Part shown: positions 196-26,400 of the stretch, piece by piece
Layout of the letters: each line of letters starts with the position of its first letter
Position numbering within the stretch: position 1 is the stretch's first letter
Origin: a virus
Direction: 5' to 3' (one strand)
DNA: 45,404 nucleotides
IMG/VR virus record: IMGVR_UViG_3300046168_000055
Coordinates: 1 to 45,404 of that record
Made by a program: the position numbers and the translations under genes
The notes under the pieces: model-generated
What the model was told of the DNA's origin: nothing
What the model saw: only the letters and a program-made list of their open reading frames with translations
The model's database searches: none

Positions 196-1797
196 TTATT
201 TAAGTAACCAGTCTAAATTTTCTGTTCCACCGTGTGGATTTTTCATTTCGTATGGATTTGTAGTAAGACCAGATTGACGATAATTTGATCCTGCATCCAT
301 ATTCGCTGTACTTCCCATATAATCAAATAAAGATTTTTGTGTCTCTATATTTTCAGAACGAAATCTAAGTGCAGTATCACGGACCCATAGTGCAATGCAC
401 AAACTCATAACCAAATCATCATTGTATCCTTGCATTGCTTCTGCTTTTTGTCCGTTCCAAATAAATGTAAACATTTCATCAAGAGTTCTTTCCGAAAAAA
501 TCTCAACTTCTTTTTCACGAACATATGTTTCCATTTTACTGATGATGAGTGGTCGAGTTTTAATAGATGTAGTAAAACCAGGTACTTGCTTTTTATCCAT
601 ACGGCTTAATTTATTAGTATGTTGAGAAAATTCATCTATATATTGAAAATCTCGTTGTGTGTAATATAAATTACTATACCCCTTATCTATAATTTGTTGA
701 AGAACCGCCCAACCTATATTTGCATTTTCCACCACAAGCAATGCTCCATTGAATTCACTTGCAACTGCAACTAACAAATTTCCAAAGTCTTTTGTTTCAA
801 CTTCTCCTTTGAACTCTGCAACTTGTCGTACATTTTCTACATCAAATACATGAAATGCACTTTTATCACGACCATCTCCACGGGCAACATCAGCTGCTAT
901 AACATAATCTTTGTTGTGGTTGGGATATTCCCATATCCAGTATTCTTTATTTGCTCCTCGTTTTTCAACGGGTTCTTTCATTAAAGTTTCTTTGTACCAT
1001 TCTATGAGGTCTGCATCAATAACCGAACGACCACTACTAATAAAGTCACAATCACATTCTTGGGCTGCATCTTTGTCTCCAAGCAACTTAGTTTGTAAAT
1101 CTCGCCAAGTTTGGTCACGATCAGGATGTAAATTCCAATGAAGTTTAATTGGATTAAAATCGTTTGATCCGTCCATTGAACCAACCCAAGTTTTATGAAA
1201 GAAGTTACCAATTCCGTTTGGAGTAGATAGCAATATAGAACGACCACCTGTTGTAATTGTTGATTGTGATGCAGTCCATATATCTTCCATATTTGAAATA
1301 AACGCACACTCGTCCACGATAAGTAAACTCAACGAAGTAGAACGAGACGCATCAACACTACTTGAAGCTGCACGAATGCTACTTCCGTTTTTAAAACGCA
1401 TACTCAGTTTATTTTTTTCTGTACACTCACTGCGTAACCAACTTGGTAAATTTTCTGACATATGTGTCACTTTAGTAACAATATTTTTTGCAGTTTCTTG
1501 GTTGATAGCAATACACAGAATTGACCTATCGGTAAAAAATGTCATTAACCACAGGGCATATCCAGATACCAACGTGGATATTCCCATTTGTCTTGCTTTT
1601 AGAACAATATTAAATTGTTCTTCTTTAAAACTTTCTAAAGTTTTCTCCTGAAATTCATACAAATGAAACGGTATTGTTCCTAATGTTGGGTGTTGAATTT
1701 TACAATACTTTTTCATAAAGTATATAGGTGATTTCAAACACTCTGTATACTCTTGTTTTATTAATTCCCTTAAGGGCATTTTTTGTCCGTCTGCCAT
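196..1797 (-). CDS. terL: terminase large subunit (TerL, T4 gp17-like)
   Basis: This is the packaging motor ATPase and headful nuclease that docks on the portal and translocates DNA into the prohead. At 533 residues it is somewhat shorter than T4 gp17 (610). Visible motifs are an adenine-binding YEFQ at 47-50, a Walker A-like ARQMGIST at 68-75, Walker B LLIVDE at 158-163 and the coupling motif LLSTPNG at 189-195. The C-terminal RNase H-fold nuclease has its acidic residues in AADVARG (Asp303), VVENAN (Glu358) and YNDDLVMS (Asp460/461). All catalytic positions are present, so the protein should be active. ATG 1797 has no good Shine-Dalgarno sequence, and Met7 is an alternative start. A terminator and a late-type promoter box lie directly upstream, so terL appears to head its own transcript. 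No small terminase subunit was recognised in the window. Confidence 0.95.
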   Translation of the reverse strand: MADGQKMPLRELIKQEYTECLKSPIYFMKKYCKIQHPTLGTIPFHLYEFQEKTLESFKEEQFNIVLKARQMGISTLVSGYALWLMTFFTDRSILCIAINQETAKNIVTKVTHMSENLPSWLRSECTEKNKLSMRFKNGSSIRAASSSVDASRSTSLSLLIVDECAFISNMEDIWTASQSTITTGGRSILLSTPNGIGNFFHKTWVGSMDGSNDFNPIKLHWNLHPDRDQTWRDLQTKLLGDKDAAQECDCDFISSGRSVIDADLIEWYKETLMKEPVEKRGANKEYWIWEYPNHNKDYVIAADVARGDGRDKSAFHVFDVENVRQVAEFKGEVETKDFGNLLVAVASEFNGALLVVENANIGWAVLQQIIDKGYSNLYYTQRDFQYIDEFSQHTNKLSRMDKKQVPGFTTSIKTRPLIISKMETYVREKEVEIFSERTLDEMFTFIWNGQKAEAMQGYNDDLVMSLCIALWVRDTALRFRSENIETQKSLFDYMGSTANMDAGSNYRQSGLTTNPYEMKNPHGGTENLDWLLK

Positions 1798-1865: not shown

Positions 1866-2091
1866 AAAATTCTATATCTGCATACTCGACAAGTTCTTTT
1901 TCAATATCACCAATTCGCTCTTCAACTTGTTTGATATCAGAGTTCAAATCTTCCATTAATTTGCCTTTTTCTGGAATATTCCACTTTTCAAGTGAACCAT
2001 CTTCGTTTAAAAATTTGAGGATCATTAATGTATATGCTTTGATTCTGCATTTTGATTTTCTAGATAGAAAAAACTTTTTCGTTTTCAGCAT
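1864..2091 (-). CDS. 75-residue frame, probably the tail of the broken gene
   Basis: This is the longest intact piece of the shredded gene and has its own ATG at 2091. Residues from about 27 onward (FLNEDGSLEKWNIPEKGKL, then an acidic heptad-like helix ending VEYADIEF) look like genuine coding sequence. The first 26 residues (MLKTKKFFLSRKSKCRIKAY...) look like out-of-frame translation of a region that reads better in the other two frames. No ribosome binding site is evident before 2091. If translated alone, it would give a small coiled-coil-like protein. I think it is a remnant rather than a separate gene. Confidence 0.35.
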   Translation of the reverse strand: MLKTKKFFLSRKSKCRIKAYTLMILKFLNEDGSLEKWNIPEKGKLMEDLNSDIKQVEERIGDIEKELVEYADIEF

Positions 2092-2128
2092 AGTCTTTTT
2101 TCGTATGCTTCGTATTTACCTTCGTCTT

Positions 2129-2380
2129 TTAATTTTTGCTCATGCTCTTGACGCAATCAAAACACATACCTTTCATAGCAACATTCTTTGCATTAAACTT
2201 AGTGGTATCACAGTACAAACTTCCTTGGGCAGTGTGTGCTTCTTGAAAGTTTTTCTGATTTTGTCCATCATGTCCTGTTCGTTCACTTTGTATTTGCACC
2301 GACCTTTTCCATTCTTTTCCGTCTTTATCGTCCATAATTCTCCTGGTTGACGAATAACAGTTCTTCAACTTCTCCTTCAT
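2129..2380 (-). CDS. 83-residue frame, middle piece of the broken gene
   Basis: This open frame carries two stretches that look genuine: DKDGKEWKRSVQIQSE and the Cys-containing YCDTTKFNAKNVAMKGMCFD. Between and around them the sequence (RTGHDGQNQKNFQEAHTAQG, and the first 18 residues) reads better in neighbouring frames. It has no recognisable ribosome binding site. It is listed because a gene caller may report it; it is best treated as part of the pseudogene at 1864-2468. Confidence 0.25.
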   Translation of the reverse strand: MKEKLKNCYSSTRRIMDDKDGKEWKRSVQIQSERTGHDGQNQKNFQEAHTAQGSLYCDTTKFNAKNVAMKGMCFDCVKSMSKN

Positions 2381-2507
2381 AACCGTGAACTTAGGGAATT
2401 TCTTCTCCTTTAAAATTTCTTCGACCGATAACGTATTTTAAATCTTCTTTATCCATTTTAAAGGCCATAACTTTATTATTCCATTCTTTTTTTGTTTTGT
2501 CAAACTA

Positions 2508-3269: not shown

Positions 3270-4316
3270 TTAATCGTATTTCCCTTTTTTGAAGTCTTTT
3301 CTGTCGTATGTTTTTTTGCTTTTCATTGGTCTGCTTTTAGGTAGTGTTTCTTTACGGACTTTTTTATAAGCATCCATCTTAGACATAAACTTTTTCTTTT
3401 TTGCTTCCGATAAGTTTCTTATTTTATGAACAAGCATCTTGATATATTCTTTTTTACTACCACGACCTTTGAAGTATGGACTTTGATCACTCAGCATTTT
3501 TGCTATATCAAGCATTGCTTTTAATTCTTTTGCATCTTCTTCATTTTCTTTGTTTTCGTTCATTTCAGTCCATCCTGTTTTTGGTACAAATTGATATTTT
3601 TCAAGTTCAATGCCCTTTGGAGATAATACCATCAAAAATTCGTTTCCTTTTGCACGAACTTTTTTGAAAGTAAATTTATCATTTGGGTATTGTTTCTTCC
3701 AATCTTTTTTTATTTCGTTTGCAGTTTTGTATTCAACCCTCTCGTTAACCGGTCCATCAAGTTTAGTAAACTCTACATAAAACAAACCAGTATCCATTGA
3801 TTCAAACGGCTTTCCACCAACATTATCTGTATGTTTTTTAGCATCTTTTCTTGTTTTGAATACATAAGGTTTGAGTTCCCCGTCCACATATCGTGCAGAT
3901 ACTTCTGGTTGCGAACCATTCACACTTAATGTAAGAACTCCGTGCTTTCCATCCACAGACTCTTGAACATCGTTACTACCTGCTCTTGCTTTTTTAACAC
4001 GTTCTTTTTCTTTTTTCTTTACCCGAGGTAATAATTTTTTTGCAACTTTTGCTATTAAACCTTTCTTCGCATCAATTTTTTTGTCAACCTTTTGCTTTTG
4101 ACTTAGAGATAATTTTGCATACGGTAAACCACCCGTTATTCTTTTTACCAACAAATTTTTTGCGGTTTTTTCAGCAGATGCTTTTAATTTAGCAGGAGTC
4201 TTCATTCTTTTTGCAAGAAGTTTTTTCTTTTTTGCTCTCTTTTTTGCAGTTCTTCTTGCCGACATAGCAAGTTTTCTTCGTGCTTGACGAGATAAATTTC
4301 TTTCATCAACTTCCAT
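3270..4316 (-). CDS. very basic hypothetical protein, likely nucleic-acid binding
   Basis: The first 120 of 348 residues are extremely Lys/Arg/Ala-rich (for example ARRTAKKRAKKKKLLAKRMK). A more balanced middle part follows, with beta-like segments (HGVLTLSVNGSQPEVSARYV, FYVEFTKLDGP), and the C-terminus is again basic and ends RKDFKKGKYD. The charge pattern suggests binding to DNA, RNA or the capsid interior. The family is not recognised. ATG 4316 lies immediately after the stop of the gene at 4319-5248, indicating a tightly packed operon. The low-complexity start makes homology to histone-like proteins an easy false lead. Confidence 0.75.
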   Translation of the reverse strand: MEVDERNLSRQARRKLAMSARRTAKKRAKKKKLLAKRMKTPAKLKASAEKTAKNLLVKRITGGLPYAKLSLSQKQKVDKKIDAKKGLIAKVAKKLLPRVKKKEKERVKKARAGSNDVQESVDGKHGVLTLSVNGSQPEVSARYVDGELKPYVFKTRKDAKKHTDNVGGKPFESMDTGLFYVEFTKLDGPVNERVEYKTANEIKKDWKKQYPNDKFTFKKVRAKGNEFLMVLSPKGIELEKYQFVPKTGWTEMNENKENEEDAKELKAMLDIAKMLSDQSPYFKGRGSKKEYIKMLVHKIRNLSEAKKKKFMSKMDAYKKVRKETLPKSRPMKSKKTYDRKDFKKGKYD

Positions 4317-4318
4317 AT

Positions 4319-5248
4319 CTAAAATCTCATTATTCCCATGATTTGATTTATAGGAGCAAATGTTCCTGTTAATTTATATGTCCCACCCTTATATTGGAAT
4401 ACGATTCCTTCACTTGGTGCGATAACCTTTGTTCCACCAATCGCAGTTAATCTGTCAAGGTTCTTGAAGAGTTTTGCAATATCCTTTTTAAACTTTTCAG
4501 GAGATTCCACCGAACTAATCTTTTTTGCTTTTAAAGTTTTAGTGTGTGCATCGAGTGCTTTTGCTATATCATCACTTCCACCAGCAGCCACAAATCCTTT
4601 AACATTTTGCAGAACTTCTGCTCCAAGTTTCAAAAAGATGAATTGAAATGGCCACATATTTGCTTCAAATTGTTTTACGATATCTTCTTTTTCAAATTTA
4701 TTGACCCAATCTTTAAGTTTGGGTTGTTCGGATAAATCCATTCGTATCGTTGTGATCTTATTTGATTTATCATTGTATGCCCACCTACCTATAAGTGCTT
4801 CATATACTTTTGATGGAAATACCTCTTTTAATTTGCTTTGTTGTTTATTTAAAAGATTTCTCCACCAAGCATCGTGATACTTCATTACTTTATCATTGTC
4901 TTTTAATTTAAATTCTTTTTTAAGTTTATCAAGCATCGCAGAATACTTTGCAAAAGAATCTCCGAATGTTTTACTTTTCGGAAGTTCCACGACAATTGGT
5001 GCGTTCAGTGAATAACGACTTTGAACATCTGCATTGATTTGTTTGAGCATACCACTTAGCATACGAGCAGAATCTTTAAGTTCGCCAGTTATATCATTAC
5101 CATCCGAATCTTCTGAAACGGGTTTGCCGGCAGAGTCGTATGCCTGTGTTCCGTGGAAAACCAACATATCTACATTTTGAGGTATGACATTTTGTGTAGC
5201 AGGAGTCATTACCTCTATGTTCATAAATCGTTCACCTTCTTTAAACAC
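4319..5248 (-). CDS. C-terminal half of a ligase-type nucleotidyltransferase fusion protein
   Basis: This 309-residue frame continues the protein encoded at 5308-7776. Upstream of its first ATG the frame stays open to about 5344 and encodes DRPENIRDAFVSAVKDLESA, which joins sensibly to residue 811 of the upstream frame. It carries the later motifs of the covalent nucleotidyltransferase (DNA/RNA ligase) superfamily: RFMNIEVMTP (motif III-like), SEGIVFQYKG near residue 280 (motif IV-like) and TYKLTG (motif V-like). Motif I lies in the other frame. ATG 5248 has no clear ribosome binding site and would remove part of the domain, so it is probably not a natural start. A -1 shift at 5344-5348 would give one protein of about 1152 residues. 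Confidence 0.7.
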   Translation of the reverse strand: MFKEGERFMNIEVMTPATQNVIPQNVDMLVFHGTQAYDSAGKPVSEDSDGNDITGELKDSARMLSGMLKQINADVQSRYSLNAPIVVELPKSKTFGDSFAKYSAMLDKLKKEFKLKDNDKVMKYHDAWWRNLLNKQQSKLKEVFPSKVYEALIGRWAYNDKSNKITTIRMDLSEQPKLKDWVNKFEKEDIVKQFEANMWPFQFIFLKLGAEVLQNVKGFVAAGGSDDIAKALDAHTKTLKAKKISSVESPEKFKKDIAKLFKNLDRLTAIGGTKVIAPSEGIVFQYKGGTYKLTGTFAPINQIMGIMRF

Positions 5249-5307
5249 TTTATTTTTCTGTGCATCACTTAAACTTGAAATTGCTGATTCTAAATCTTTA
5301 ACTGCAC

Positions 5308-7776
5308 TTACAAACGCATCACGAATGTTCTCAGGACGATCCGAAAAATACTTTCAAATTCAGAAACATCGGGTGCGGCCGCACCTGCATTTTTCAAATG
5401 ACCTTGATTTCTCGCCGAGACCAACTTTCCATCTTTCCAAGAAAACATTAAATTTTGACCATCAAGTTTTTCAGTAACTTCCTTTTCAACATTAAGTTCA
5501 CCTGCTAATGATCTACGAATCATTTCCTTCAAATCCGCAAAAGTTAAATCTTTATCATCAAACGGATGACTCATGTGACCAGCCGCCCCTCCTTCTGTTA
5601 AAAGTTTATTTTCTTTGATTGCCTGACCTTCGACTCCTTTATCTATTTTGTCTTCGTTTTCATCATCTTCTACATCAAGTGTATTTCCATCTACATTTTC
5701 TTCACCTGTTTTATCATCTTTTCTAATAGATGCTTCTGAACCAACGAAGTCAATTAGTTTATATCCTGATGTTTCTGCTACTCCGTCAATGAATTCAACC
5801 CATTGATCATGTGCAGATTTACTTTTATCAATCGAAATCTGATTATTTGCAGTCGTTTCGTCTGTAACTCCTGCTGGATAAAAACTTACTGCTGGAACAG
5901 GACCTGCGTATTTTCCCCATTCACGATAATCCATATTACGACCCAATCCGTGTTTTCCGACAACATAGTCAAGCAAATCATACCCAAGTTGTTTTACACG
6001 GGCATCACTTTCTTTTTCATAAACATCACCGGGAAAAAACGAACCAGGACCATCATCTACAAGTGATAATCCTGATAATGCAATTGTACTTATTTCGTTA
6101 ACAAGATTTTCAAACTTAGGATACTCGTATAAGAAACTTTCAAATAACTCTTCGTTTTCAAATAGTGTTGAGAATTTTTTGGTCAAATACTTAAATATCT
6201 TTTCATCATACCAACCAAAAAGTTCTTCAAATGCTTTAATCTTTGTCATTTCATCATACTCAGGACTTCCAAGTAGTTCACGTATGTATGTTCCGTTTAC
6301 TTCTTTTCCAAGTACCTTGATGCTTACGTGTGGAGCAACAATAAAATATCCGTGATTTTTGTATGGTTCTAAATTATTTTTATTCTTTTTATATGATTGG
6401 TAGTATCCAGGAGTTCCATCAACTTTTTTAGTTTTCAATCTACCTGCATCTTTTTCTCCGAAGATATACACAACTGCCGTGGTTTCTGGATCATAATTAT
6501 CTAATAGTTCCGCACATACATATGGATTCTTAACCTTGACCACATTTCTTACTTTGTGCTTTTTCCATATCATATTCTTTTCTTTGAAATCCAATGGACT
6601 TTTTGTTGTGTCAGTTTTATCACTTGTTGCAACCCAAGCTTCATCAAATTGTTTGTCTAACCACTTGTATGTTTTATAGTGGTGAGCACCCGCGGGTTGG
6701 AATCTACCTGGATAAATTCCTATTACCTTTGTAACATTAGAATTTTCAAAAATTGTTTCTATTTCTTCGGTTAAATAATTTTCAAGTGTTTCTTTTACAG
6801 AAACGTCTGGTGTAATATCTATAGGTTTCTTTATAGCACTTTTTTTGTCTTCGGGTGATGTTGTCACGTAATCTTGGTACTTTCCGATTGGTGTTGTTTC
6901 GTATTTTCTAATGTTGCAAGAAATCTTAGCATCATATTCATTTGGCAAATTGTTTTCTATACCAGTAAACTTTACTGCATCAGGAACCAAATACAATATC
7001 ATTTCTTTTTTATTTAAATTCATAAGTTGCTGACTTGATGTCCACAAATAATGTTGGGTTCTTACTATATCGTATTTAGGACCCCTTTCTTGTTGGTGAT
7101 TGTAAAACGCAGGAAACATTTCTTCGTATACATCTGCACCATTAACCAACTGTTCAGCATTCTTCATACGAATTTCAGAAGAATCTCTGTTGTCACCAGG
7201 AGCATATCCAGAAGTAGGATCAGCAATTCCGTGGTTGGTTCTAATCACTGGTTCTGTTAACTCGGTATCTGTAACCGTTGGTTCTGTTTTGCTTGTATTT
7301 TCAATGACCTTGGTTGTAGTTCCGTCACTTACAATCGTATGACCTTTTACACCCTTTTCAAAGTTTAACAACGACTCAACAACCTCGTTTAGAGTTTTTT
7401 TGCTGAGTGCTTCTTTAATTCTGATTCCGTCTTTTGATGGTTTCTTGGTTTTCTTGGCAATCTTTTTTTCTTTTTCGTCACGTTTTACCATCAACGCACT
7501 ATTCACAATTCCAATTCCCTCGGAATTCATTCCTTCTGACCAACCCGTATCTTGATCCACTACATAGCATAACTCAACACCTTCACTTGTTAGTTCCCTA
7601 ACAACTTTCAAACTTGGTGCATAATTTCTATCTCGGTTTTTACCAAGAACAACGTCTTCACCAAACTTTTTAGCACACACAACGCATTCTTCTATAGGAC
7701 CTGCTTCACACAATGAAATATCATTTGTTAGCAACTCGGATAGTTTCGTGCCGAAATCTGTGCTTAAATGCTCCAT
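5308..7776 (-). CDS. fusion of Ntn-hydrolase-like, NMNAT-like and ligase-type motif I domains
   Basis: There are at least three parts. Residues about 25-250 resemble Ntn-hydrolases of the penicillin V acylase/C45 type: candidate nucleophile Cys31 in ECVVCAKKFG, then LGKNRDRNY and SEGMNSEGIGIVNSALM. Residues 351-510 form a HIGH-type nucleotidyltransferase (IYPGRFQPAGAHHYKTYKWL, later GTYIRELL, like the SSTxIR of NMNAT enzymes). The first His of the usual HxGH is replaced here. Residues about 735-811 start a ligase-superfamily domain with motif I EKLDGQN (Lys770). The last 11 residues (RIVLRTFVMRL) are out-of-frame; the next ORF supplies the rest. ATG 7776 abuts the upstream stop. The domain mix suggests nucleotide, NAD or RNA end chemistry, but the substrate is unknown. 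Confidence 0.8.
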   Translation of the reverse strand: MEHLSTDFGTKLSELLTNDISLCEAGPIEECVVCAKKFGEDVVLGKNRDRNYAPSLKVVRELTSEGVELCYVVDQDTGWSEGMNSEGIGIVNSALMVKRDEKEKKIAKKTKKPSKDGIRIKEALSKKTLNEVVESLLNFEKGVKGHTIVSDGTTTKVIENTSKTEPTVTDTELTEPVIRTNHGIADPTSGYAPGDNRDSSEIRMKNAEQLVNGADVYEEMFPAFYNHQQERGPKYDIVRTQHYLWTSSQQLMNLNKKEMILYLVPDAVKFTGIENNLPNEYDAKISCNIRKYETTPIGKYQDYVTTSPEDKKSAIKKPIDITPDVSVKETLENYLTEEIETIFENSNVTKVIGIYPGRFQPAGAHHYKTYKWLDKQFDEAWVATSDKTDTTKSPLDFKEKNMIWKKHKVRNVVKVKNPYVCAELLDNYDPETTAVVYIFGEKDAGRLKTKKVDGTPGYYQSYKKNKNNLEPYKNHGYFIVAPHVSIKVLGKEVNGTYIRELLGSPEYDEMTKIKAFEELFGWYDEKIFKYLTKKFSTLFENEELFESFLYEYPKFENLVNEISTIALSGLSLVDDGPGSFFPGDVYEKESDARVKQLGYDLLDYVVGKHGLGRNMDYREWGKYAGPVPAVSFYPAGVTDETTANNQISIDKSKSAHDQWVEFIDGVAETSGYKLIDFVGSEASIRKDDKTGEENVDGNTLDVEDDENEDKIDKGVEGQAIKENKLLTEGGAAGHMSHPFDDKDLTFADLKEMIRRSLAGELNVEKEVTEKLDGQNLMFSWKDGKLVSARNQGHLKNAGAAAPDVSEFESIFRIVLRTFVMRL

Positions 7777-8303: not shown

Positions 8304-8654
8304 TTAATCCTCAAGATATTCTTCTATCTTTCCTGTTTTAAGATGCCGCGTACACGCCTTGCGTTTATCACGATGCATATGTGGTGCTTTTTTCAAATAC
8401 TCATCGGTGCAATGAAATACATATCCATCAACTACAGGGCCCTCACTGGTTTCTCCTTCACTGAATATTCCAATAAACTTAAAATCTTCTTTTTCTTTTT
8501 GCACAAGTTTATTTGCCATTCCTCTTGCCCAAGTTTCGTTTCCAAACTTAGACGATGAAAAACTATAACGAGCATGAGTAGGAGCCATTTCAAGATGCCA
8601 AGCCTCACCCAACTTATCTTCTGAAATTAATTCATCTATAATTTTATCAAACAT
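8304..8654 (-). CDS. hypothetical protein, 116 residues
   Basis: The start chosen is ATG 8654 (MFDKIIDELISEDK), which has AAGGAG ten bases upstream. An upstream TTG at 8657 would add one residue and is less likely. The start overlaps the TGA of the upstream kinase gene (TGATG). The sequence has a Cys/His-rich end (GYVFHCTDEY, APHMHRDKRKACTRHLKTG) that could bind metal. An aromatic HARYSFSSSKFGNETWARGM segment sits in the middle. It is short and soluble, and the family is not recognised. Confidence 0.75.
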   Translation of the reverse strand: MFDKIIDELISEDKLGEAWHLEMAPTHARYSFSSSKFGNETWARGMANKLVQKEKEDFKFIGIFSEGETSEGPVVDGYVFHCTDEYLKKAPHMHRDKRKACTRHLKTGKIEEYLED

Positions 8655-9703
8655 CAATCTTTTTCTCCTTTGAATTTCATAGTTCTAATATGATGGAAAT
8701 ACTTTACAAGTTGGTTTCTGCTCAGATTTAAACTTTCTACCAACCTCGATAGCACCGCAAGATTTCTTTTTTCATTTAGCTTAAACTTGTTGATAACGTG
8801 AATCGAACGACTTAAATGTCGTTCCAAATCCATAGGAAGAACAACTTCTTCCATAGATACCATATCGAGGTCTTCGTTCATACGGTTTCGTTTATCACCA
8901 CTCTTACTCATTTTATCGTGTTTCATCATCAAAGTAATCCACTGTTTACCGATTGGATTTTTAATAGGTTTTCCAATGAACCGTGCAGTTGCTTTTAATA
9001 TAAATGGAGCAAGATTGAGTTTACCTGGTTTTGTTTTGCTTCTTAAATCTTCTGAGTTATCAATAATAGTAAAATTCTGCTTGAATACACTTTGAAATTT
9101 TCCCATATTCTTTTGAACATCTTTCCATATAACATCCACAATTTTACGTGGAAGTTTTCTTGCACGAAAAGCATTTCGTTGTTGTGCAACTTCAAGTGTT
9201 GTATTAACAAATACCATATAACAATCGTATCCAAGTTTTTCCAACTCTTTCTTTTGTTTTGATATTTTAGCATAATCATCACCTGTTCCATCAACAATAA
9301 CACCCAACCTACCATTTTTGTAATGCTCGTATTGTTTGAGCATAATGTTTTTGGCACGTGAACGAATTGAGTTTGGATTACTGCTTGTTATTTGTTGAAA
9401 CACATCATCATCAAGTGAACCTAAATCTAAACTATGTCCTGCTTTTTTCAACAAATGCTCAAACGAACTATCACTATTTACTATTTTTAATCCAGTTGAA
9501 GTTAATGACTTTACTTCGGGTGTTGTATTAAAAACGGTATCTACAACTGCTGATTTACCTGCACCAGGACCACCCGCTAAAAACACTGCTTTCAAAATAC
9601 CAGGATCATATACACCTTCAACGAGTGTAAAATATCCTTTGCGAAGACCGGCCTTGATAAGACTTTCTTCTTGGACTTCTTGGTTTTCTTCGGAATTACT
9701 CAT
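8654..9703 (-). CDS. P-loop kinase, zeta-toxin/polynucleotide-kinase-like
   Basis: The 349-residue protein has a clear Walker A, FLAGGPGAGKSAVVD, near residues 42-56. Features typical of small-molecule or polynucleotide kinases of the zeta-toxin group follow: IVNSDSSFE after the P-loop, VIVDGTGDDYAKI (Walker B-like) and CYMVFVNTTLEVAQQRNAFRAR with the lid arginines. The C-terminal 110 residues are a helical extension of unknown role. The substrate could be a nucleotide, UDP-sugar or nucleic-acid 5' end; the sequence does not decide. No antitoxin-like partner is adjacent. It starts the block that includes the ligase/NMNAT-like fusion, so a shared nucleic-acid or cofactor repair role is possible. 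ATG 9703 has only a weak ribosome binding site. Confidence 0.85.
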   Translation of the reverse strand: MSNSEENQEVQEESLIKAGLRKGYFTLVEGVYDPGILKAVFLAGGPGAGKSAVVDTVFNTTPEVKSLTSTGLKIVNSDSSFEHLLKKAGHSLDLGSLDDDVFQQITSSNPNSIRSRAKNIMLKQYEHYKNGRLGVIVDGTGDDYAKISKQKKELEKLGYDCYMVFVNTTLEVAQQRNAFRARKLPRKIVDVIWKDVQKNMGKFQSVFKQNFTIIDNSEDLRSKTKPGKLNLAPFILKATARFIGKPIKNPIGKQWITLMMKHDKMSKSGDKRNRMNEDLDMVSMEEVVLPMDLERHLSRSIHVINKFKLNEKRNLAVLSRLVESLNLSRNQLVKYFHHIRTMKFKGEKD

Positions 9704-16099: not shown

Positions 16100-19000
16100 C
16101 TAAACGTCATATTTTATTAAAAAGTTGATTGGATAGTTGGGAACTAACTTAACTGGATTTGCTAATTTGGCGGTCATGACCAAATCAGGTCCATCGTATA
16201 ATCCTATTGTTGTAGCATACGGAGCAAGAAAACTTCCTGTTTTATCTTTTTTGTTTTCATCTTCGTAATCAAGAAATCCTTCTCGTATCTTACGACCACG
16301 ATATTTTCCTGTCATTTCATCAAGATACTCAATGATTTGATACGCACCTTGACGTTTGCTGTTTTTATTAAGAGGACTAATTAAATTTTCAATGAGTGAA
16401 GAACCAGTTCTTCCTACAAAGTATCTTGCTAATAACTTGGCATCTACTGCACTAACCACTCCGTCCATATCTATATCTAAACCAGTTTCTTTCAACAAAC
16501 TTAGTTGGTCTAGTTTGTCTAGCATTCTTAGTTCTTCTTGTTTATCCAAAGTAACATTTGCAGTTAAATTAGTTAGCACATTCATTAAAATTACGTCATC
16601 GGATTCACTAAGAATAATATCTTCGTTTGGCCACATTTTATCTTGCTCAAGAACTAAACTTCCATCGGGTTCTCCTGTATTTTCATCAGTTGCACTTGCT
16701 CGTTTGAAAGAACCAAGTATATAACGATAGATGTAAGATAAATCTACGATATCAAATTTATTATCTCCATTAATATCAAACGGTATTTCTTCGTATTCAA
16801 CTGAAGATGGATTGGTGCTTGTGTTAAACTCTTGTGGATCAACCTTACATACGATTTCATTTTCATATATGCAGTTGACTCCATCAAACGATATTTCATA
16901 TCCTCTGCGACCACCCATACTTAGTATATTTTCAAAATAGTCGGTTAGTTCGGTTATCACCGCAATTCCGTTTTTGTAAAATACATTTCCTACATACACT
17001 CGGTCACCGTCTCTTATTGTTTTAATATCATATGCAACAATTGATCCTTCTAAAAGTAATTCGTTGTTTTGTAAGTTCCCCCATATAATATCTCCACGTT
17101 GTGAAAATATATGAGAACATGAATCAAATGAAACAATTTCATCATCTCCAAAACTTGAAATCTGATCAACTGGCCAATCACCCGTTACGGAGTTACCTAC
17201 ATAAATTCGGGTAGAACTCAACGAAACATCAATACCGTATTGACTTTTTATGTTGTTTTTTTGCTTTACACTTTTGATTGTTTTTATAGACATCAAAGTT
17301 CCATCATCATTTATTCTAAAATATTTAACGCGGCCTTGAATACTGTTTTTCTTAATTGTATATATAAACTCTATTTCTTCAATCGGATCAAACAAGTGAG
17401 ATATTGTTTTAACATAAAAATGAACTTCTCCGTTTGTGTGTTTGGTTTTATCACGATAAACTCCGTTTGTCAAAGTTCCGTGGTCGGTGTCTACAAGATT
17501 TTTATCGGAGGATATAAACGATGCACGAATTTCAAAATCAGATATATTTTCAAGATCAATGTTAATGATACTCTTAACATCAATTTTTATTACCATATCA
17601 ACAAATTCATTTCCTATGAATTCGTGCGTAAAACTTGTATATAAACTTTGCAATACAGTATAATAATCTTCATCGTTGTTTTCTACTCCAACTGAGTAAT
17701 CAGGAATCATAAACTCAGTTCCATTGTTGTTGATCATTATTTTACTTTCATCTGAACAAGGTGATCCAACGAGTAGGTCATTTCCAATTAAAGACAACCC
17801 ACATCCAAATCTATTATTGTAACGCATTTCTTCTTGTTCTTCTTCGTATATTTTTCGTATGTAATTGATTGATTCGTCAGTAACTTCATACATCCACACA
17901 GCACCTGCCGAATAAGAAATTCCTTGTAAAAGTTCAACATCGGTATCTACATATTTTCTATCATTGTCATCTCCAATGAAAATATATTTTCCGTTTGTTT
18001 CAATTGATGTTCCATAGTTTGATTTATTGTGGTCAAAATATTGATATGGATATCGTACCGTATCTTGTCGTGATTCAACATTATTTATAGTTGGATTTAT
18101 AGAAAAGGAAATAGCCGAAGGATTTCCTACTAAAACTAAACCCTTATATCTTCCTATATAAAGTGTATAATCTCCGTTTGGAATATCAACTAATTCAAAT
18201 TTATTAGTAGTAATTACATTTCCACCATGAACTATTTTACTATTATACTTATCAGTTCCTTCTCCAAATCGTTTATTGAATCTATAAACGAAACCTTCAT
18301 CGGTTGGTTCGGTAATCGTTTTTGTATCTACTTCAACTGATAGTTTATTTCCCGTTACCTCGTATTTTATTTCATCAAAAGATTCCGATAAAATTAAATT
18401 ATCGTTGTCTAAATTATAAATTTCGTTTTTGTGTAATGTTTGTGTATTTACCCAAATATCACAACTACCTGTGGTTGATTGTTTTTTGGTGAAAATATGA
18501 GCAAGTTTAGATTCTGTTTTTGGAGATGTTGAAATTAACATATCTCCAAATAATTTAATGTTTTGACCTAGCATATCACTACCGGGTGCTTTAATGATTG
18601 AAACTAATTCCCAAGTTACATCACCAACTCCCATTGTTGGTGTGCGATTTCCGTTTTCAAATTCGTGATATTTTGAAACAGGAAATCCGGTTTCAAATCC
18701 AAATGAAGAAACACTTTCATTTTCATCAAACATAGAGATTTGGTTTTCTTCACACTCATCTGGTTCACTTCCGAAATAAGTAATTTCATACTCATCAGGA
18801 GACGCAGTTGAAATTTTCCAACGATACGTTGAAGAATTTATTTCTTTAAGTTTGTCACACACAGGAAAACCTGTGAAGTTTTTTGTTACTTCATTGTAAC
18901 AATACTTTGAATGCGAATCTGATATTCTATACCAAGGCATTGTTTCGTTTCTTATTTTTTTCTCAAATAAATAAATTGCTCCTTCGCAATCATACATACC

Positions 19001-20209
19001 GGGAGCACCAATGGCCATATACTTTCCGTGAATTGATATGGACGCACCAAACTCTGATCCGGGATCACCTTCAAGAATATTAGTGATACCCCAATGTTCC
19101 GATCCACCTTTGTCAACATCATATAAAAATACGTGACCTGTTCTTGACTCGTTACAATCTCCGTGGATATGTGAACGAGATGAACCCACTGCACACGTTC
19201 CATTTTTTAATTCAATCGCCGAACCGAACTCATCGTTTATGGAATAATCTTTTCCACCCAAAAGTTGACCGAGTTCAGTTACTAAAAATCCAGATGAATT
19301 AAGTTCCGATTCAGCTATTAATCCTTGTTGAGTAAATGGGCAACTGAAATTTCGTATAACTCTATATTCTTTAGTGAGTGGATCGTACTTGAATAAAGAT
19401 GCACTTCCTGTTAAATAATCACTTGGTGAATCTTGGTGCATAGGAGCACCTGATAAAACATAATCTCCATCTGATGATATTGTTTTTCCGACAAGCATAT
19501 CAGATGAATTGAATGTTTTATTTTTTCCAGGTTTTTCTTCATTTGCAGTTGATCGTTTTATTTCTTTTATTTCGTTAAAAGAAGTTTCACTTATTACTAA
19601 ATTGGTTGCACCATCATCAACGATTTCTATTACACCATACGGAGAACTATAATCTGTTATTTTGAAGTTATTTGGTTTTATTTTTTCTCCAAATTGTGTT
19701 TTAGAAAACTCAATAACAAGAATATCATCTTTTATTACACGACGTTCATAGTTGACCGAGCGATTACCAAACGCATCAGTTTCGTTTTCGTTGGTTTTGT
19801 ATTGACCTGTTTCAGAACCAAAAACCATTAAAGGATTTTTGACGTCTTCTGTGTTTTCGTAAATTCCATATTCGTTATAAAATAAATGCTTTATGCTACT
19901 ATAAACACTTCGGTAATAAGACCCGTCATAATTTATTTGTTCAACAGACGGATTGTGGTTTTTATGACCGACTGGATAAAATGTACCCGTTAATTTCTTA
20001 CCACGTTTGATTTTTACTTTTGTTTTGCTTGAACTCTGTTCAGTCGCAAGACCCATTCTCTCGTCAAGTGTTATTGTAGCATTTTCTCCATTTTTACGTG
20101 GTTGTTCCAACACAATATTGGTAAGAGAATCTACAGTTGAGTGTTCCCAAGACTTATGTGACTTAAATTTTCTAACTATCTTGTCAGAAACTTTCAGAGT
20201 TTTAATCAT
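16100..20209 (-). CDS. large adhesin-like tail protein with FG-GAP repeats and dockerin-like pair
   Basis: At 1369 residues this is a probable host-contact protein. It contains several FG-GAP/beta-propeller-type blades: FGSAIELKNGTCAVGSSRSH, FGASISIHGKYMAIGAPG, YGTSIETNGKYIFIGDD and FGCGLSLIGNDLLVGSPC. Near the C-terminus are two dockerin-like calcium loops, DINGDNKFDIVD (from 1145) and DIDMDGVVSAVD (from 1245), each followed by the expected helix. The end (TTIGLYDGPDLVMTAKLANP) matches the end of the next protein and is probably an attachment module. No signal peptide is present. A CTAAATA box lies 12 bases before ATG 20209, which has an AT-rich leader and no Shine-Dalgarno. Binding partners cannot be predicted. 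Confidence 0.82.
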   Translation of the reverse strand: MIKTLKVSDKIVRKFKSHKSWEHSTVDSLTNIVLEQPRKNGENATITLDERMGLATEQSSSKTKVKIKRGKKLTGTFYPVGHKNHNPSVEQINYDGSYYRSVYSSIKHLFYNEYGIYENTEDVKNPLMVFGSETGQYKTNENETDAFGNRSVNYERRVIKDDILVIEFSKTQFGEKIKPNNFKITDYSSPYGVIEIVDDGATNLVISETSFNEIKEIKRSTANEEKPGKNKTFNSSDMLVGKTISSDGDYVLSGAPMHQDSPSDYLTGSASLFKYDPLTKEYRVIRNFSCPFTQQGLIAESELNSSGFLVTELGQLLGGKDYSINDEFGSAIELKNGTCAVGSSRSHIHGDCNESRTGHVFLYDVDKGGSEHWGITNILEGDPGSEFGASISIHGKYMAIGAPGMYDCEGAIYLFEKKIRNETMPWYRISDSHSKYCYNEVTKNFTGFPVCDKLKEINSSTYRWKISTASPDEYEITYFGSEPDECEENQISMFDENESVSSFGFETGFPVSKYHEFENGNRTPTMGVGDVTWELVSIIKAPGSDMLGQNIKLFGDMLISTSPKTESKLAHIFTKKQSTTGSCDIWVNTQTLHKNEIYNLDNDNLILSESFDEIKYEVTGNKLSVEVDTKTITEPTDEGFVYRFNKRFGEGTDKYNSKIVHGGNVITTNKFELVDIPNGDYTLYIGRYKGLVLVGNPSAISFSINPTINNVESRQDTVRYPYQYFDHNKSNYGTSIETNGKYIFIGDDNDRKYVDTDVELLQGISYSAGAVWMYEVTDESINYIRKIYEEEQEEMRYNNRFGCGLSLIGNDLLVGSPCSDESKIMINNNGTEFMIPDYSVGVENNDEDYYTVLQSLYTSFTHEFIGNEFVDMVIKIDVKSIINIDLENISDFEIRASFISSDKNLVDTDHGTLTNGVYRDKTKHTNGEVHFYVKTISHLFDPIEEIEFIYTIKKNSIQGRVKYFRINDDGTLMSIKTIKSVKQKNNIKSQYGIDVSLSSTRIYVGNSVTGDWPVDQISSFGDDEIVSFDSCSHIFSQRGDIIWGNLQNNELLLEGSIVAYDIKTIRDGDRVYVGNVFYKNGIAVITELTDYFENILSMGGRRGYEISFDGVNCIYENEIVCKVDPQEFNTSTNPSSVEYEEIPFDINGDNKFDIVDLSYIYRYILGSFKRASATDENTGEPDGSLVLEQDKMWPNEDIILSESDDVILMNVLTNLTANVTLDKQEELRMLDKLDQLSLLKETGLDIDMDGVVSAVDAKLLARYFVGRTGSSLIENLISPLNKNSKRQGAYQIIEYLDEMTGKYRGRKIREGFLDYEDENKKDKTGSFLAPYATTIGLYDGPDLVMTAKLANPVKLVPNYPINFLIKYDV

Positions 20210-22463: not shown

Positions 22464-23495
22464 TCACTCCATTTCTCGTATATCTCCACCAAAAGTCATA
22501 AATTTATCGTTTGCATACACTCGCATCCCCTCATTTACTCCTCCGGTGATCGTATGTTTCTGCTCATTTAACATTTCTTGTGTCTGTGACTTTATTACCT
22601 CAGAAATTTTTTCTCCGTTTAGAACCCGTGACTTTGTTCTTTGATTGTATAACAAATTTGCTTCTACATATTCGGTTGGTTGTTGATAATGGAATTTTAT
22701 TCCACCGGCCGGAGGTTGTGCTATATATTGAGAGGTTGGTCTTTTTGATTCCAACGGATTTTGCCTACTTGTATTGTATAAGTAAGACATTTCAGATGTT
22801 ACCTCCATTCCTTCATCTACATTTCCATAATCAATGTTGTCGGAAAAAATAAATACACTATCAACAAGACCACTGAATCTACCTACTTCTAAATTTTTTA
22901 ATTTTAATATATCACGTGCATATCCCTCGTCATATGATTTTCTGTATATATTGTCCACAAACAAACGGGTTGTACCAGATGGATATATGCTTAAAACAAT
23001 CCACGTCCATTTATTTTTGGGAATGGTTACATCAAACATTATGTCTTGATATCTCCATTTAGTAGTTCCGTCTTCAATTTCTATTTTATGGTTTGCCCAA
23101 GTGTATCCAAGTGATCCAGTTATATCTTCATCACCGGTTTCTTCATTTGCGTTTACTATCAAACCACACCGGTTAGTATCATCGTTTGTTCCTATAATCA
23201 AAGAAGACATTAAAGATTCTCCTTGAAAATTCACCCAAGCAGCCAGTGTAAGTGCATTTGTTTCTATGGGTGTACCAGTATCTCTAATTTCTACATGATC
23301 ATATGCTTTGAAAGTTTCTTCGTCTGCACCCGATATGTCATTTGATAATTTTGCAAACCTCGAAGTGTTTCTATCTAAACCACCATCTGTTACTTTTCCG
23401 TGCAAATGTGCGGTTCTTTTTTTATCTGACAAATCATCAACTCTGTAATGATCTTGTGGAGGTATCTCCATTGGTGTTGGTGTTTCTTCTGCCAC
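22464..23495 (-). CDS. LamG/concanavalin-like tail protein
   Basis: The 343-residue protein has a central LamG-type jelly-roll. LTLAAWVNFQGESLMSSLII, NKWTWIVLSIYPSGTTRLFV, DNIYRKSYDEG and EVGRFSGLVDSVFIF follow the usual strand order (about residues 80-215). Such domains bind glycans or act as fibre modules. The start is GTG 23495, overlapping the TAG of the giant upstream gene (TAGTG), with AAAGGAG eight bases before it. The C-terminus ends ANDKFMTFGGDIREME. It probably assembles with the giant tail protein, whose own LamG-like region is similar in type. Confidence 0.82.
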   Translation of the reverse strand: MAEETPTPMEIPPQDHYRVDDLSDKKRTAHLHGKVTDGGLDRNTSRFAKLSNDISGADEETFKAYDHVEIRDTGTPIETNALTLAAWVNFQGESLMSSLIIGTNDDTNRCGLIVNANEETGDEDITGSLGYTWANHKIEIEDGTTKWRYQDIMFDVTIPKNKWTWIVLSIYPSGTTRLFVDNIYRKSYDEGYARDILKLKNLEVGRFSGLVDSVFIFSDNIDYGNVDEGMEVTSEMSYLYNTSRQNPLESKRPTSQYIAQPPAGGIKFHYQQPTEYVEANLLYNQRTKSRVLNGEKISEVIKSQTQEMLNEQKHTITGGVNEGMRVYANDKFMTFGGDIREME

Positions 23496-26400
23496 TACTT
23501 AAACTCCTTTGTTAAATCTGGACCACCTTTTATATTTTTCAGCACAGATATATTTCCAGTTCCCTCAATATACTCACCAAAACAAGCACTCGCAGGAATT
23601 TCAACCAACGAAGTTCTTGATATTTTTACCGACCAAACATTTGATCCACCCTCTGATGTTTGCGTGATTTGTTCCTGTTGGTTTGGTTTATACCATCCTT
23701 CGGATAGATTATATTGGTATGCGTTAGAATCACATCCTGTGTAATTAAATTCCATTCCTTCAATATAAAAAATATCTTGCTTGGTTATAGTATTTGTATT
23801 GTTTGTTGATCCTTTTAATGGTGTTGCCTTTAATTGAAAATTATTGGTGGAATTATTAAAGTTGTTTTCTGATGATGTTCCGTGTACGGAATAAGTTTCT
23901 ATATCAAACATACCTGACAAATCTTCTGTTAAAGTTGGGTTTTCTTGCATTTCATTAGGATCATCAACGTTTCCATACCACTTCCATTCTGTGACTAATC
24001 CTGGGTGTATTGCAGATGATGACGCATAATAGTGCTTTGTTTTGGTTGGTGACCAAACACCGTCTTCATCTTTTACTTTAGATGATATGTACCAGTAGGA
24101 GCTTAGACCCGATGTCTCATACCAAATTTCCACCTCCACTTTGTCTTTATTCAAATCCCACATATTGGTGTAAACTGGTCGGTTGTTGTATCGTGAAACT
24201 AAATAATAAACACCATCAAGAATTATATTTGTATCACTTGCTTTTGCTTTTGCTCCACTCAACTTGAACGATGTGGGAGTTTCTTCGTCTCTTGCTAAAA
24301 AGGTTGGTACATACGGAGTTGATGTCAAACTTGGAGTAAAAGACGCAGTTGGAGATGGAGTTGCTGATGCAGTGCTTGTAGGTGTGATTGTTGGGGTGTG
24401 TGTATTTGTTGGAGATGGTGTAGAGGTTAATGTCGGAGATTGTGTTGGTGTACCTGTTGGTGATGGAATTGGTGTTGGTGATGGAAGTGGTGACGGAGTC
24501 AGTGTCGGTGTATTAGTCTCCGTTGGAGTTGCGGTGTTTGTGGGAGATGGAGTTGGTGTGTTTGGCCAAGATATTTCATATGCAGTATTAAAAGAATAAT
24601 ATGCTTCAAGTTTTGAACGAGTTTCATTAGATAGATCAGAAAATCCTTTGTATGTTCTTGGTGGAACTGGTGTCGTTTGTGTTACTACCGGTGTATCATC
24701 TGTAAACCAAAATGAGTCGTGTGTAGTACCACCCACTCTATCAAGAGGAACTCGTTTTCTAACTATTGGTGGTGTTCTGTCAATTTCACCGGCACGATTA
24801 ACAGTAGTATTTACTGAATTTGCAGTTCTCTTTCTGAACAAATTTCTTCGTTTACTTAGGTGTTGTTTTTGTTTTCCGCGTGAAACCAAATCTCCATCTA
24901 TCTTTATTTTATTAACATCACACAACCTATAATCAATTTCATTGAAATACAGACATCTGTTTGTGAATGGTACTATTAGTTCACGTGACATTTCGTCCGA
25001 TCCGTCTTCAAATGATTCAACTATATCCTTTGCTTCATTTATCAGTTTTTCGTTTTCAATAATATATGTTTGATCTTTTGATGTAAAAACATCAACCTTA
25101 GTGGTTAGTGAAATTTTTCTTATCTCGGGAACACTATTTGAAATTTGTTTATTAAGTCTAAACCTTTTTGTTGTTAGTGTGTTGGTAATTTGCTCAGGAT
25201 TGTCCTGAGATAAAAACTCGTAATTGAATGTCTCCGAAACTTCATTTGTAGTTCTTTTGTATTGATCTTTTATTCTTATTTGAATGTCTTCTTGAATTTT
25301 GTTTTCTAAAAAATCTATACTAAAATCTACGACTGGATTAGAAACATTGTTTAATTTACCATCATTACTGATTCTTATTTTTGCAGACTTTGGTATATCC
25401 AACCCAAAGAAATCAGGTTTGTAATTAAAATCAACAGGAATATTAGTTGAAATTCTGTTACTGGTTGTTGAAAGAACTTTTCTAACATCAAACGCATCTG
25501 TATCATCTTGATATCCATACTCAGAACGAACCTTGTATGTGAATGTAGATGGATCATATTTGTTTATTTCAAGTGTATCGTTTTCTGAAATCGTAAAATT
25601 TATTTTTCGGTTTGCTACTATTGCCTTGGTTTCATCAAAATCAAGTTCACCCTGTCGTTCTATATAGTAAATCCCGTATATTTCATCCATATCATTTCCT
25701 GTTCCGTCATCACGAACACGTTCTTTGTATTGTATTTTTTTATCGGATAATATATCACTGATACACCAGGATTGGATTTCGGTAAACTCGTCTATGTTTG
25801 AGAAAATAAACCACTCGTAGTTGCTATGCCAAACTGATTTGTTATTTTTTATTAATGTTGTTTTTATGAACGTTCTGTTGTGAACTTGGTCGTTGTCTGA
25901 CATTATATGCAACAAAATGTCATCGTACTCATCCTTTTCTAAATACAAGTAAGATATACTTCCTGCATCTGAAATATATTCTCCATATTTTGGGTACTCA
26001 CAACTCGGATTTCGTTCTGTTACTTTCGTGCTTTTGCTTGAAATTAATTTATTCGTTGATCTTTCATTCAGAATTCTAAGATAACTTATTTCCCAACCAG
26101 TGGTTTCTTTGTTTACTACTACATTGTCTTGAATTTGGTTTACATATTCTACACCTTCACCGGACTCAAACTCTGTTGATGTGGAGTATGTTCCATAAAA
26201 GTCAAGTAATTCCTCGTCACAATCAAGACGAGTACATTCTATATCAAGAACAACGGTTGCATCGATTTCATCAAGTGCTTTACGAGAACCAATATACAAA
26301 GAAGATGCATCAGTTGGTGTTATTGAAATATCGTATGTTGGATAGTCCATATCATCACAAGTTGAACAGGCACTTTCATTTCTAATCATTCCCCACACAA

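What the first reader, a model, noticed from the sequence alone, without database searches (positions are those of the whole stretch)
4319..7776. Three-enzyme fusion: Ntn-hydrolase-like, NMNAT-like, ligase-like
One polypeptide of about 1150 residues appears to join a self-processing Ntn-hydrolase-type domain (candidate Cys31), a HIGH-type nucleotidyltransferase with a changed first His (GRFQPAGAHH), and a covalent nucleotidyltransferase with KLDG, EGIVF and YKLTG motifs. The combination suggests a pathway that cleaves an amide, transfers a nucleotide and adenylates an end or cofactor. I know no described system of this composition.
Basis: partly seen in the sequence, partly recalled or inferred. 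Interest (0 to 1): 0.68.

Follow-up and report, generated by a model that had tools for sequence, protein, structure and literature searches.

The report
Segmented phage cargo polyprotein with Ntn-hydrolase
A marine T4-like virus of bacteria encodes one long protein that strings together three different enzymes, and the linkers between the enzymes in this protein family carry what look like cut sites for the virus's own capsid-maturation protease, which suggests a kit of enzymes that is packed into the virus head, cut apart there and injected into the host.

Summary
The three domains are real (minus strand), but in this window they are not one reading frame: a single base is missing in a T-run at 5344-5348, splitting the gene into an 822-aa and a 309-aa ORF. 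A near-identical virus (L002) reads through as 1152 aa. Domain 1 is a C45-type Ntn hydrolase (AlphaFold2/Foldseek: isopenicillin N acyltransferase, E 1.7e-9) with nucleophile Cys31. Domain 2 is a HIGH-family nucleotidyltransferase of NMNAT type. Domain 3 is a divergent covalent nucleotidyltransferase resembling RNA ligases. NMNAT plus ligase is a very common marine-phage gene; the Ntn domain is a mobile extra module. Relatives shuffle these modules with kinase, tRNA-nucleotidyltransferase and KOW-like modules. Module starts are preceded by [LIVMF]xE within unrelated linkers: 24/24 kinases, 80/82 NMNATs (shuffles 19), 17/17 Ntn directly before the Cys, 22/22 KOW, 45/71 ligases. The same motif lies at the putative capsid-protein maturation site, and relatives encode a T4-type prohead protease. 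Best explanation: a head-packaged, prohead-protease-cut cargo polyprotein, related in concept to T4 Alt and 'polyvalent proteins'. Substrates are unknown. No virion proteomics exist for this family; only more distant NMNAT-like proteins have been found in cyanophage virions.

The parts
5308..7776 (-). ORF 1 (822 aa): leader, Ntn hydrolase, NMNAT-like domain, unassigned middle region, start of the ligase-like domain
   Evidence: the ORF listing; intact 1152-aa counterpart in L002 4076-7534
4319..5248 (-). ORF 2 (309 aa), -1 frame: remainder of the ligase-like domain
   Evidence: in frame with ORF 1 in L002 and in the relatives
5344..5348 (-). T-run of five where L002 has six: the one-base difference that splits the gene in this window
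7687..7776 (-). 30-residue leader ending LCE-AGP-IEE directly before Cys31; capsid-targeting-like in length and form
   Evidence: comparison with relatives' leaders
6829..7686 (-). Ntn-hydrolase module (Cys31 to residue 316), C45/acyltransferase type
   Evidence: NCBIfam C45_proenzyme E 4.6e-8, below its cut-off; AF2 model pTM 0.77 and Foldseek to 2x1c E 1.7e-9
7684..7686 (-). Cys31, candidate N-terminal nucleophile, preceded by invariant Glu30
   Evidence: E30 and C31 invariant in 17/17
6745..6774 (-). LTE...IFE sites in the linker before the NMNAT-like domain
   Evidence: 80/82 relatives have such a site here
6142..6729 (-). HIGH-family nucleotidyltransferase (NMNAT-like) domain
   Evidence: Pfam CTP_transf_like in 23/39 fusions, best 8.2e-11; PDB NMNAT hits
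6679..6708 (-). GRFQPAGAHH, the GxHH form of the HxGH motif
6280..6297 (-). NGTYIR, second signature of the family (SGTxxR)
   Evidence: G, T, R conserved in the sequences that hold the domain
5602..6141 (-). middle region, no assigned fold, low model confidence
5593..5601 (-). LTE site directly before the ligase-like domain (GGAAGHMSHPFDD)
   Evidence: 45/71 distinct linkers have [LIVMF]xE directly here
5350..5592 (-). start of the ligase-like domain, with KLDG (5458-5469)
   Evidence: K, D, G invariant in 63/63; Pfam RNA_ligase sub-threshold at this spot in L002 and relatives
4364..4411 (-). EGIVF (motif IV) and YKLTG (motif V-like) of the ligase-like domain
   Evidence: E, G, K, T, G invariant
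8654..9703 (-). neighbouring zeta/AAA_33-type kinase gene with TLVE-G before the catalytic domain; fused into the same polypeptide in many relatives
   Evidence: Pfam Zeta_toxin 7.1e-11; 24/24 with the site
196..1797 (-). large terminase, marking the late/packaging context
   Evidence: PHROG terminase 1.6e-49

Best explanation
The gene encodes a cargo polyprotein of a T4-like marine phage. It is made late, packed into the prohead by its N-terminal leader, and cut by the phage's S77 prohead protease after [LIVMF]-x-Glu in the linkers. The cuts free an Ntn hydrolase (with Cys31 now N-terminal and therefore active), an NMNAT-like nucleotidyltransferase and an RNA-ligase-like nucleotidyltransferase, which enter the host with the DNA. 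Shown here: domain identities, module shuffling, the site motif and its conservation, the presence of the protease in relatives, late gene context. Inferred: packaging, the cutting itself, injection, and the role. The likeliest role is repair or protection of tRNA/RNA and nucleotide cofactors against host defence, because sister modules are a PNK-like kinase and a tRNA nucleotidyltransferase; that is a lead only. The Ntn substrate is unknown.
For: (1) [LIVMF]xE precedes each module type although the linkers are unrelated: NMNAT 80/82 (shuffles mean 19.2, maximum 32) and 18 of 19 linker types; kinase 24/24 at a fixed offset (shuffles mean 7.2, maximum 14); KOW-like 22/22; ligase 45/71; baseline 2.0% per position and 17% per nine positions; Ntn 17/17 with P3 = V/I/L and E directly before Cys. 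(2) The putative maturation site of the major capsid protein has the same form: IDE-S, IDE-G, ISE-A in three related phages, and FLTE-A in T4 gp23 read from the record. T4 gp21 cuts the packaged enzyme Alt at ITE and LTE (PMC5694885). (3) The S77 prohead protease is found in 15 of 17 related records. (4) The gene lies close to the terminase, and head genes follow. (5) NMNAT-like proteins are found by mass spectrometry in virions of several cyanophages (PMC10665884, PMC9602691). S-SCSM1 gp91, one of them, begins MKSFLQFLKE-A. (6) Folds and invariant catalytic residues.
Against: No virion proteomics exist for this family. The cyanophage NMNAT-like virion proteins are of the same superfamily but do not match the family profile, and their authors note that carry-over in purification is possible. 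About a third of distinct ligase linkers lack the site (KELLLM-GG). A solo Ntn homologue (L064) starts MINE-C, a leader too short to be obvious targeting, so I-x-E-C may serve autoprocessing. The window contig holds no recognised protease gene (fragment). Short acidic motifs can also act as helix caps or solubility linkers.
Confidence: 0.62

Rival explanations
1. The Ntn module processes itself: cleavage between Glu30 and Cys31 is autocatalytic as in other C45 enzymes, and the prohead protease plays no part at this site. The rest may or may not be cut.
For: Autocatalytic exposure of the Cys is the rule for C45 pro-enzymes (established family knowledge; NCBIfam describes C45_proenzyme as autoproteolytic). 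The solo homologue L064 with a 4-residue leader keeps I-x-E-C.
Against: It does not explain the same motif before kinases, NMNATs, tRNA-nucleotidyltransferase and KOW modules, which cannot cut themselves.
Confidence: 0.4
2. An intracellular multifunctional enzyme that stays uncut; the xE motifs are only helix-ending linkers.
For: Gene fusions of enzymes are common in large phages; there is no direct evidence of cleavage in this family.
Against: P3 and P1 are conserved while P2 and the rest vary, across unrelated linkers; the same pattern occurs at the capsid-protein site; module order is shuffled.
Confidence: 0.2
3. One reading: the three activities act in sequence on one substrate (amide cleavage, nucleotide transfer, adenylation).
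For: They share one polypeptide in L002.
Against: Most relatives lack the Ntn domain; its position and partners change; no NAPRTase partner was found in eight records.
Confidence: 0.06
4. Assembly chimera: the Ntn part was joined to the gene by mis-assembly.
For: Close relatives lack the Ntn part at this locus, and the window has a frameshift.
Against: L002, a separate contig that differs by 55 mismatches, has the same junction; Ntn-NMNAT-ligase recurs in other phages.
Confidence: 0.02

Closest known systems
Polyvalent proteins of phages and conjugative elements (Iyer et al. 2017, PMC5512222)
   Same: Many enzymatic domains in one phage polypeptide, shuffled between relatives, in late or virion gene context, proposed to be injected and to counter host defences
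   Different: There, processing is proposed through a built-in MPTase domain; here the modules are separated by prohead-protease-like sites. The term Ntn does not occur in the paper, and the passages found report no RNA ligases fused in polyvalent proteins. A sub-threshold MPTase-PolyVal match appears only in relative L029.
T4 Alt and internal proteins IPI-III (capsid targeting sequence plus gp21 cleavage)
   Same: Short N-terminal leader; cleavage motif [I/L]xE; enzyme cargo entering the host; S77 protease in the genome
   Different: T4 cargo proteins are one enzyme each; here several enzymes are in tandem with sites between them
Family C45 Ntn hydrolases (isopenicillin N acyltransferase, NAAA) and choloylglycine hydrolases
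   Same: Fold, Cys nucleophile position, KNRD, GMNS..N and TNH motifs
   Different: Only remote sequence similarity (NCBIfam 32.8 bits against a cut-off of 85); embedded in a phage polyprotein; E-C junction with aliphatic P3
NMNAT/NadM-type HIGH nucleotidyltransferases
   Same: GRFQP and SGTxxR motifs, fold
   Different: GxHH replaces HxGH in about two thirds of the members examined; no Nudix domain seen and no NAPRTase (NadV) partner in eight records
T4 RNA ligase 1/2 (Pfam RNA_lig_T4_1, RNA_ligase)
   Same: KxDG, a glutamate in a motif III-like segment, EGxVF, a lysine in motif V
   Different: About 200 mostly helical residues between motifs III and IV; K-x-T instead of K-x-K in motif V; below Pfam cut-offs

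Membership tests
Polyvalent proteins | two or more distinct effector/enzyme domains in one phage polypeptide, shuffled between relatives | tested here: met
   architectures; Pfam/PHROG domains
Polyvalent proteins | late or virion-gene neighbourhood | tested here: met
   terminase at 196-1797; head genes and S77 protease downstream in relatives
Polyvalent proteins | MPTase or another of the described core domains | tested here: not met
   none in the window protein; a weak MPTase-PolyVal match (E 0.034) only in relative L029
T4-type ejected cargo (Alt/IP) | leader and [I/L]xE sites for a gp21/S77 protease | tested here: met
   protease
T4-type ejected cargo (Alt/IP) | present in the virion and delivered to the host | not testable with these tools
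   only the analogy with cyanophage NMNAT-like virion proteins
C45 / Ntn hydrolase | Ntn alpha-beta-beta-alpha fold | tested here: met
   AF2 pTM 0.77; Foldseek 2x1c E 1.7e-9, TM 0.57
C45 / Ntn hydrolase | nucleophile Cys that becomes N-terminal | tested here: inconclusive
   Cys invariant 17/17 and correctly placed; cleavage not testable
C45 / Ntn hydrolase | score above the NCBIfam cut-off | tested here: not met
   32.8 against 85 bits
NMNAT / HIGH nucleotidyltransferase | HxGH and SGTxxR motifs | tested here: inconclusive
   SGTxxR met; HxGH present in 22/62 and GxHH in 40/62
NMNAT / HIGH nucleotidyltransferase | fold and Pfam match | tested here: met
   relatives up to E 8.2e-11; best Foldseek hits are NMNAT/PPAT; the window protein itself is below cut-off
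RNA ligase | motifs I, III, IV and V | tested here: inconclusive
   I, III-like and IV invariant; V is K-x-T
RNA ligase | profile match above cut-off | tested here: not met
   PF09414 E 0.001-0.015 at motif I; PF09511 none; hhalign P 0.0065 to T4 Rnl1, probability 5.8%; ligase-like domain not reached in the fold search

The most novel reading that the evidence does not exclude
A virus keeps an Ntn hydrolase as a zymogen inside a packaged multi-enzyme polyprotein and switches it on during capsid maturation: the prohead protease cuts [VIL]xE-Cys, so the nucleophile is unmasked only inside the head, just before delivery. More broadly, marine T4-like phages use their capsid protease to turn exchangeable enzyme modules into an injected kit.
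Probability: 0.33. Interest if true: 0.82.

Novelty: new variant of a known kind. Interest (0 to 1): 0.64.

Why it matters
If right, the motif [LIVMF]xE before a domain becomes a reading rule that picks out head-packaged, injected enzymes in uncultured marine phages, a set that is otherwise very hard to recognise from sequence. The mosaic order of modules gives a catalogue of cargo to test for counter-defence.

Tried and rejected
Self-contained pathway: rejected as the leading reading because the Ntn module is optional and moves. Chimera: rejected by L002. Programmed -1 frameshift in the window: a slip on the T-run would restore the protein, but the relatives are simply in frame, so it is not needed. 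ADP-ribosyltransferase domain at the N-terminus of relatives L056/L059: an S-T-S/ExE-like pattern was read by eye, but Pfam and PDB searches gave nothing, so it is not claimed. Ntn relatives in bacterial genomes: none confirmed. Defence-system models (PADLOC): no match. NadV partner: none in eight records. Fold search of the 818-aa model was dominated by the NMNAT-like domain and did not settle the ligase-like or middle region. An early note read the window as an indel-prone assembly; one search showed that all gaps but one lie in a variable intergenic stretch (2008-2460).
Full report
Observation. The finding lies on the minus strand. The motifs are all present, but in this window the protein is split: ORF 5308-7776 (822 aa) stops shortly after KLDG and the rest (EGIVF, YKLTG) continues in the -1 frame as ORF 4319-5248. 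L002, a contig of a near-identical virus, has one more T in the run at window 5344-5348 and gives 1152 aa in one frame. Over 11.9 kb this is the only indel inside a listed gene; all other gaps lie in the variable intergenic stretch 2008-2460. The relatives are in frame. So the fusion is real, and the break in the window is an error or a strain-specific defect.

Domains. The N-terminal domain matches NCBIfam C45_proenzyme below its cut-off (4.6e-8). An AlphaFold2 model (pLDDT 74, pTM 0.77) finds isopenicillin N acyltransferase as the best solved structure (E 1.7e-9, TM 0.57), followed by bile salt hydrolases, penicillin V acylases and NAAA. Glu30-Cys31 and the KNRDR, GMN..N and NHG residues are invariant in 17 relatives. 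The second domain is a HIGH-family nucleotidyltransferase: Pfam CTP_transf_like in 23 of 39 fused relatives, best 8.2e-11, and weak NMNAT hits by profile and by fold. Its motif exists as HxGH or as GxHH, with SGTxxR kept. The C-terminal domain has invariant KxDG, ARN, a motif III-like glutamate, EGxxF and K-x-T-G. It rings Pfam RNA_ligase sub-threshold in six records at the KxDG region and aligns weakly in register with T4 Rnl1. I call it RNA-ligase-like, not a proven ligase. A middle region of about 180 residues remains unassigned.

Family. NMNAT-middle-ligase without Ntn is the common form: L003 and other relatives with about 75-85% DNA identity in the flanking genes have an 832-850-aa protein at the same locus, with about 27 codons where the window has about 347. 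The Ntn module is found in 14 viral loci from its own scan, embedded in ORFs of about 970-1676 aa in most and solo in a few (L064, and the Chryseobacterium phages MA9V-1 and MA9V-2), with none confirmed in bacterial genomes. Architectures by motif scan: NMNAT-ligase; Ntn-NMNAT-ligase; kinase-NMNAT-ligase; KOW-kinase-Ntn-NMNAT-ligase; KOW-Ntn-tRNA-nucleotidyltransferase-NMNAT-ligase; NMNAT-KOW-Ntn-ligase; nucleotidyltransferase-Ntn-kinase-zincin-like (module families). In the window the kinase is a separate gene, with two small genes between it and the fusion gene.

Linkers. Before each module the family has [LIVMF]xE. Before the NMNAT domain it is within 3-11 residues in 80 of 82 dereplicated sequences, against 19.2 on average and 32 at most in 2000 shuffles, and in 18 of 19 linker groups with unrelated sequence; P2 varies freely. 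Before the kinase: 24 of 24 at the same offset, shuffles mean 7.2, maximum 14. KOW-like: 22 of 22. Ligase: 45 of 71 distinct linkers directly at the boundary; most of the others read KELLLM. Baseline in the same proteins is 2.0% per position and 17% per nine positions. Before the Ntn Cys: E in 17 of 17 with V, I or L at P3. Relatedness among sequences inflates plain counts, which is why the linker groups are given as well; shuffling does not model evolutionary relatedness.

Protease. T4 gp21 cuts after such motifs, including Alt at ITE and LTE (PMC5694885). T4 gp23 in the record reads FLTE-AEIGG at residue 65 (65-residue propeptide per PMC5694885). The capsid proteins of three related phages have LIDE-S, LIDE-G and LISE-A at the corresponding place; this position is inferred by similarity, not by experiment. 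S77 prohead protease is encoded in 15 of 17 related records, close to the fusion gene and with head genes around it in L003's genome.

Virion evidence. NMNAT-like or cytidylyltransferase proteins were found by mass spectrometry in virions of cyanophages S-CBWM1, S-SZBM1, S-SCSM1 and S-CREM2 (PMC10665884, PMC9602691), with the authors' caveat about carry-over. The S-SCSM1 protein begins MKSFLQFLKE-AAES and its neighbours are annotated as virion proteins. It is not a close homologue: the family profile did not match that genome. This is support by analogy.

Mechanism. I propose: late synthesis; packing through the leader; cutting by the S77 protease at [LIVMF]xE; release of active enzymes, the Ntn hydrolase becoming active when Cys31 is the N-terminus; ejection into the host. 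Shown: sequence, folds, conservation, gene context. Inferred: packing, cutting, delivery, role. Whether E30-C31 is cut by the protease or by the Ntn domain itself cannot be decided here: the motif fits the protease, but a solo homologue with the 4-residue leader MINE keeps it too. The role in RNA and cofactor repair is a guess from module company (PNK-like kinase, tRNA nucleotidyltransferase, ligase-like domain); no NadV partner was found.

Known and new. The concept of injected multi-domain phage proteins is known ('polyvalent proteins', PMC5512222), and so is prohead-protease trimming of single cargo enzymes. I found no paper that describes cargo polyproteins segmented by prohead-protease sites, or an Ntn hydrolase in such a protein; the library held is open-access only, so absence there is weak evidence. 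I rate it a new variant of a known kind.

Noticed in passing
window 23495-33745 (-): A 3416-aa ORF with no Pfam match and only one PHROG of unknown function (phrog_15511, near its C-terminal end); it lies between baseplate wedge genes and an FG-GAP/dockerin protein, so probably an adhesin or tail-fibre-like protein.
   Followed up: partly
window 16100-20209 (-): 1369-aa protein with FG-GAP repeat and dockerin matches, unusual for a phage adhesion protein.
   Followed up: no
family-wide, motif at window 6679-6708: The HIGH motif exists in two forms in one phage protein family, HxGH (22/62) and GxHH (40/62), as if His and Gly had changed places.
   Followed up: partly
window 2008-2460: Intergenic stretch that is hypervariable between the window and L002 while the flanking 11 kb is about 99% identical.
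   Followed up: no
L029 7107-10016, L054, L056: Related cargo-like proteins combining a pol-beta-type nucleotidyltransferase, the Ntn module, a kinase and a C-terminal HExxH segment with a weak MPTase-PolyVal match (tested in L029).
   Followed up: partly
window 3270-4316 (-): Very Lys/Arg-rich 348-aa protein directly downstream of the fusion gene, and a 117-aa protein at 8304-8657 starting LMFDKIIDELISE-D; possible further head-internal proteins.
   Followed up: no
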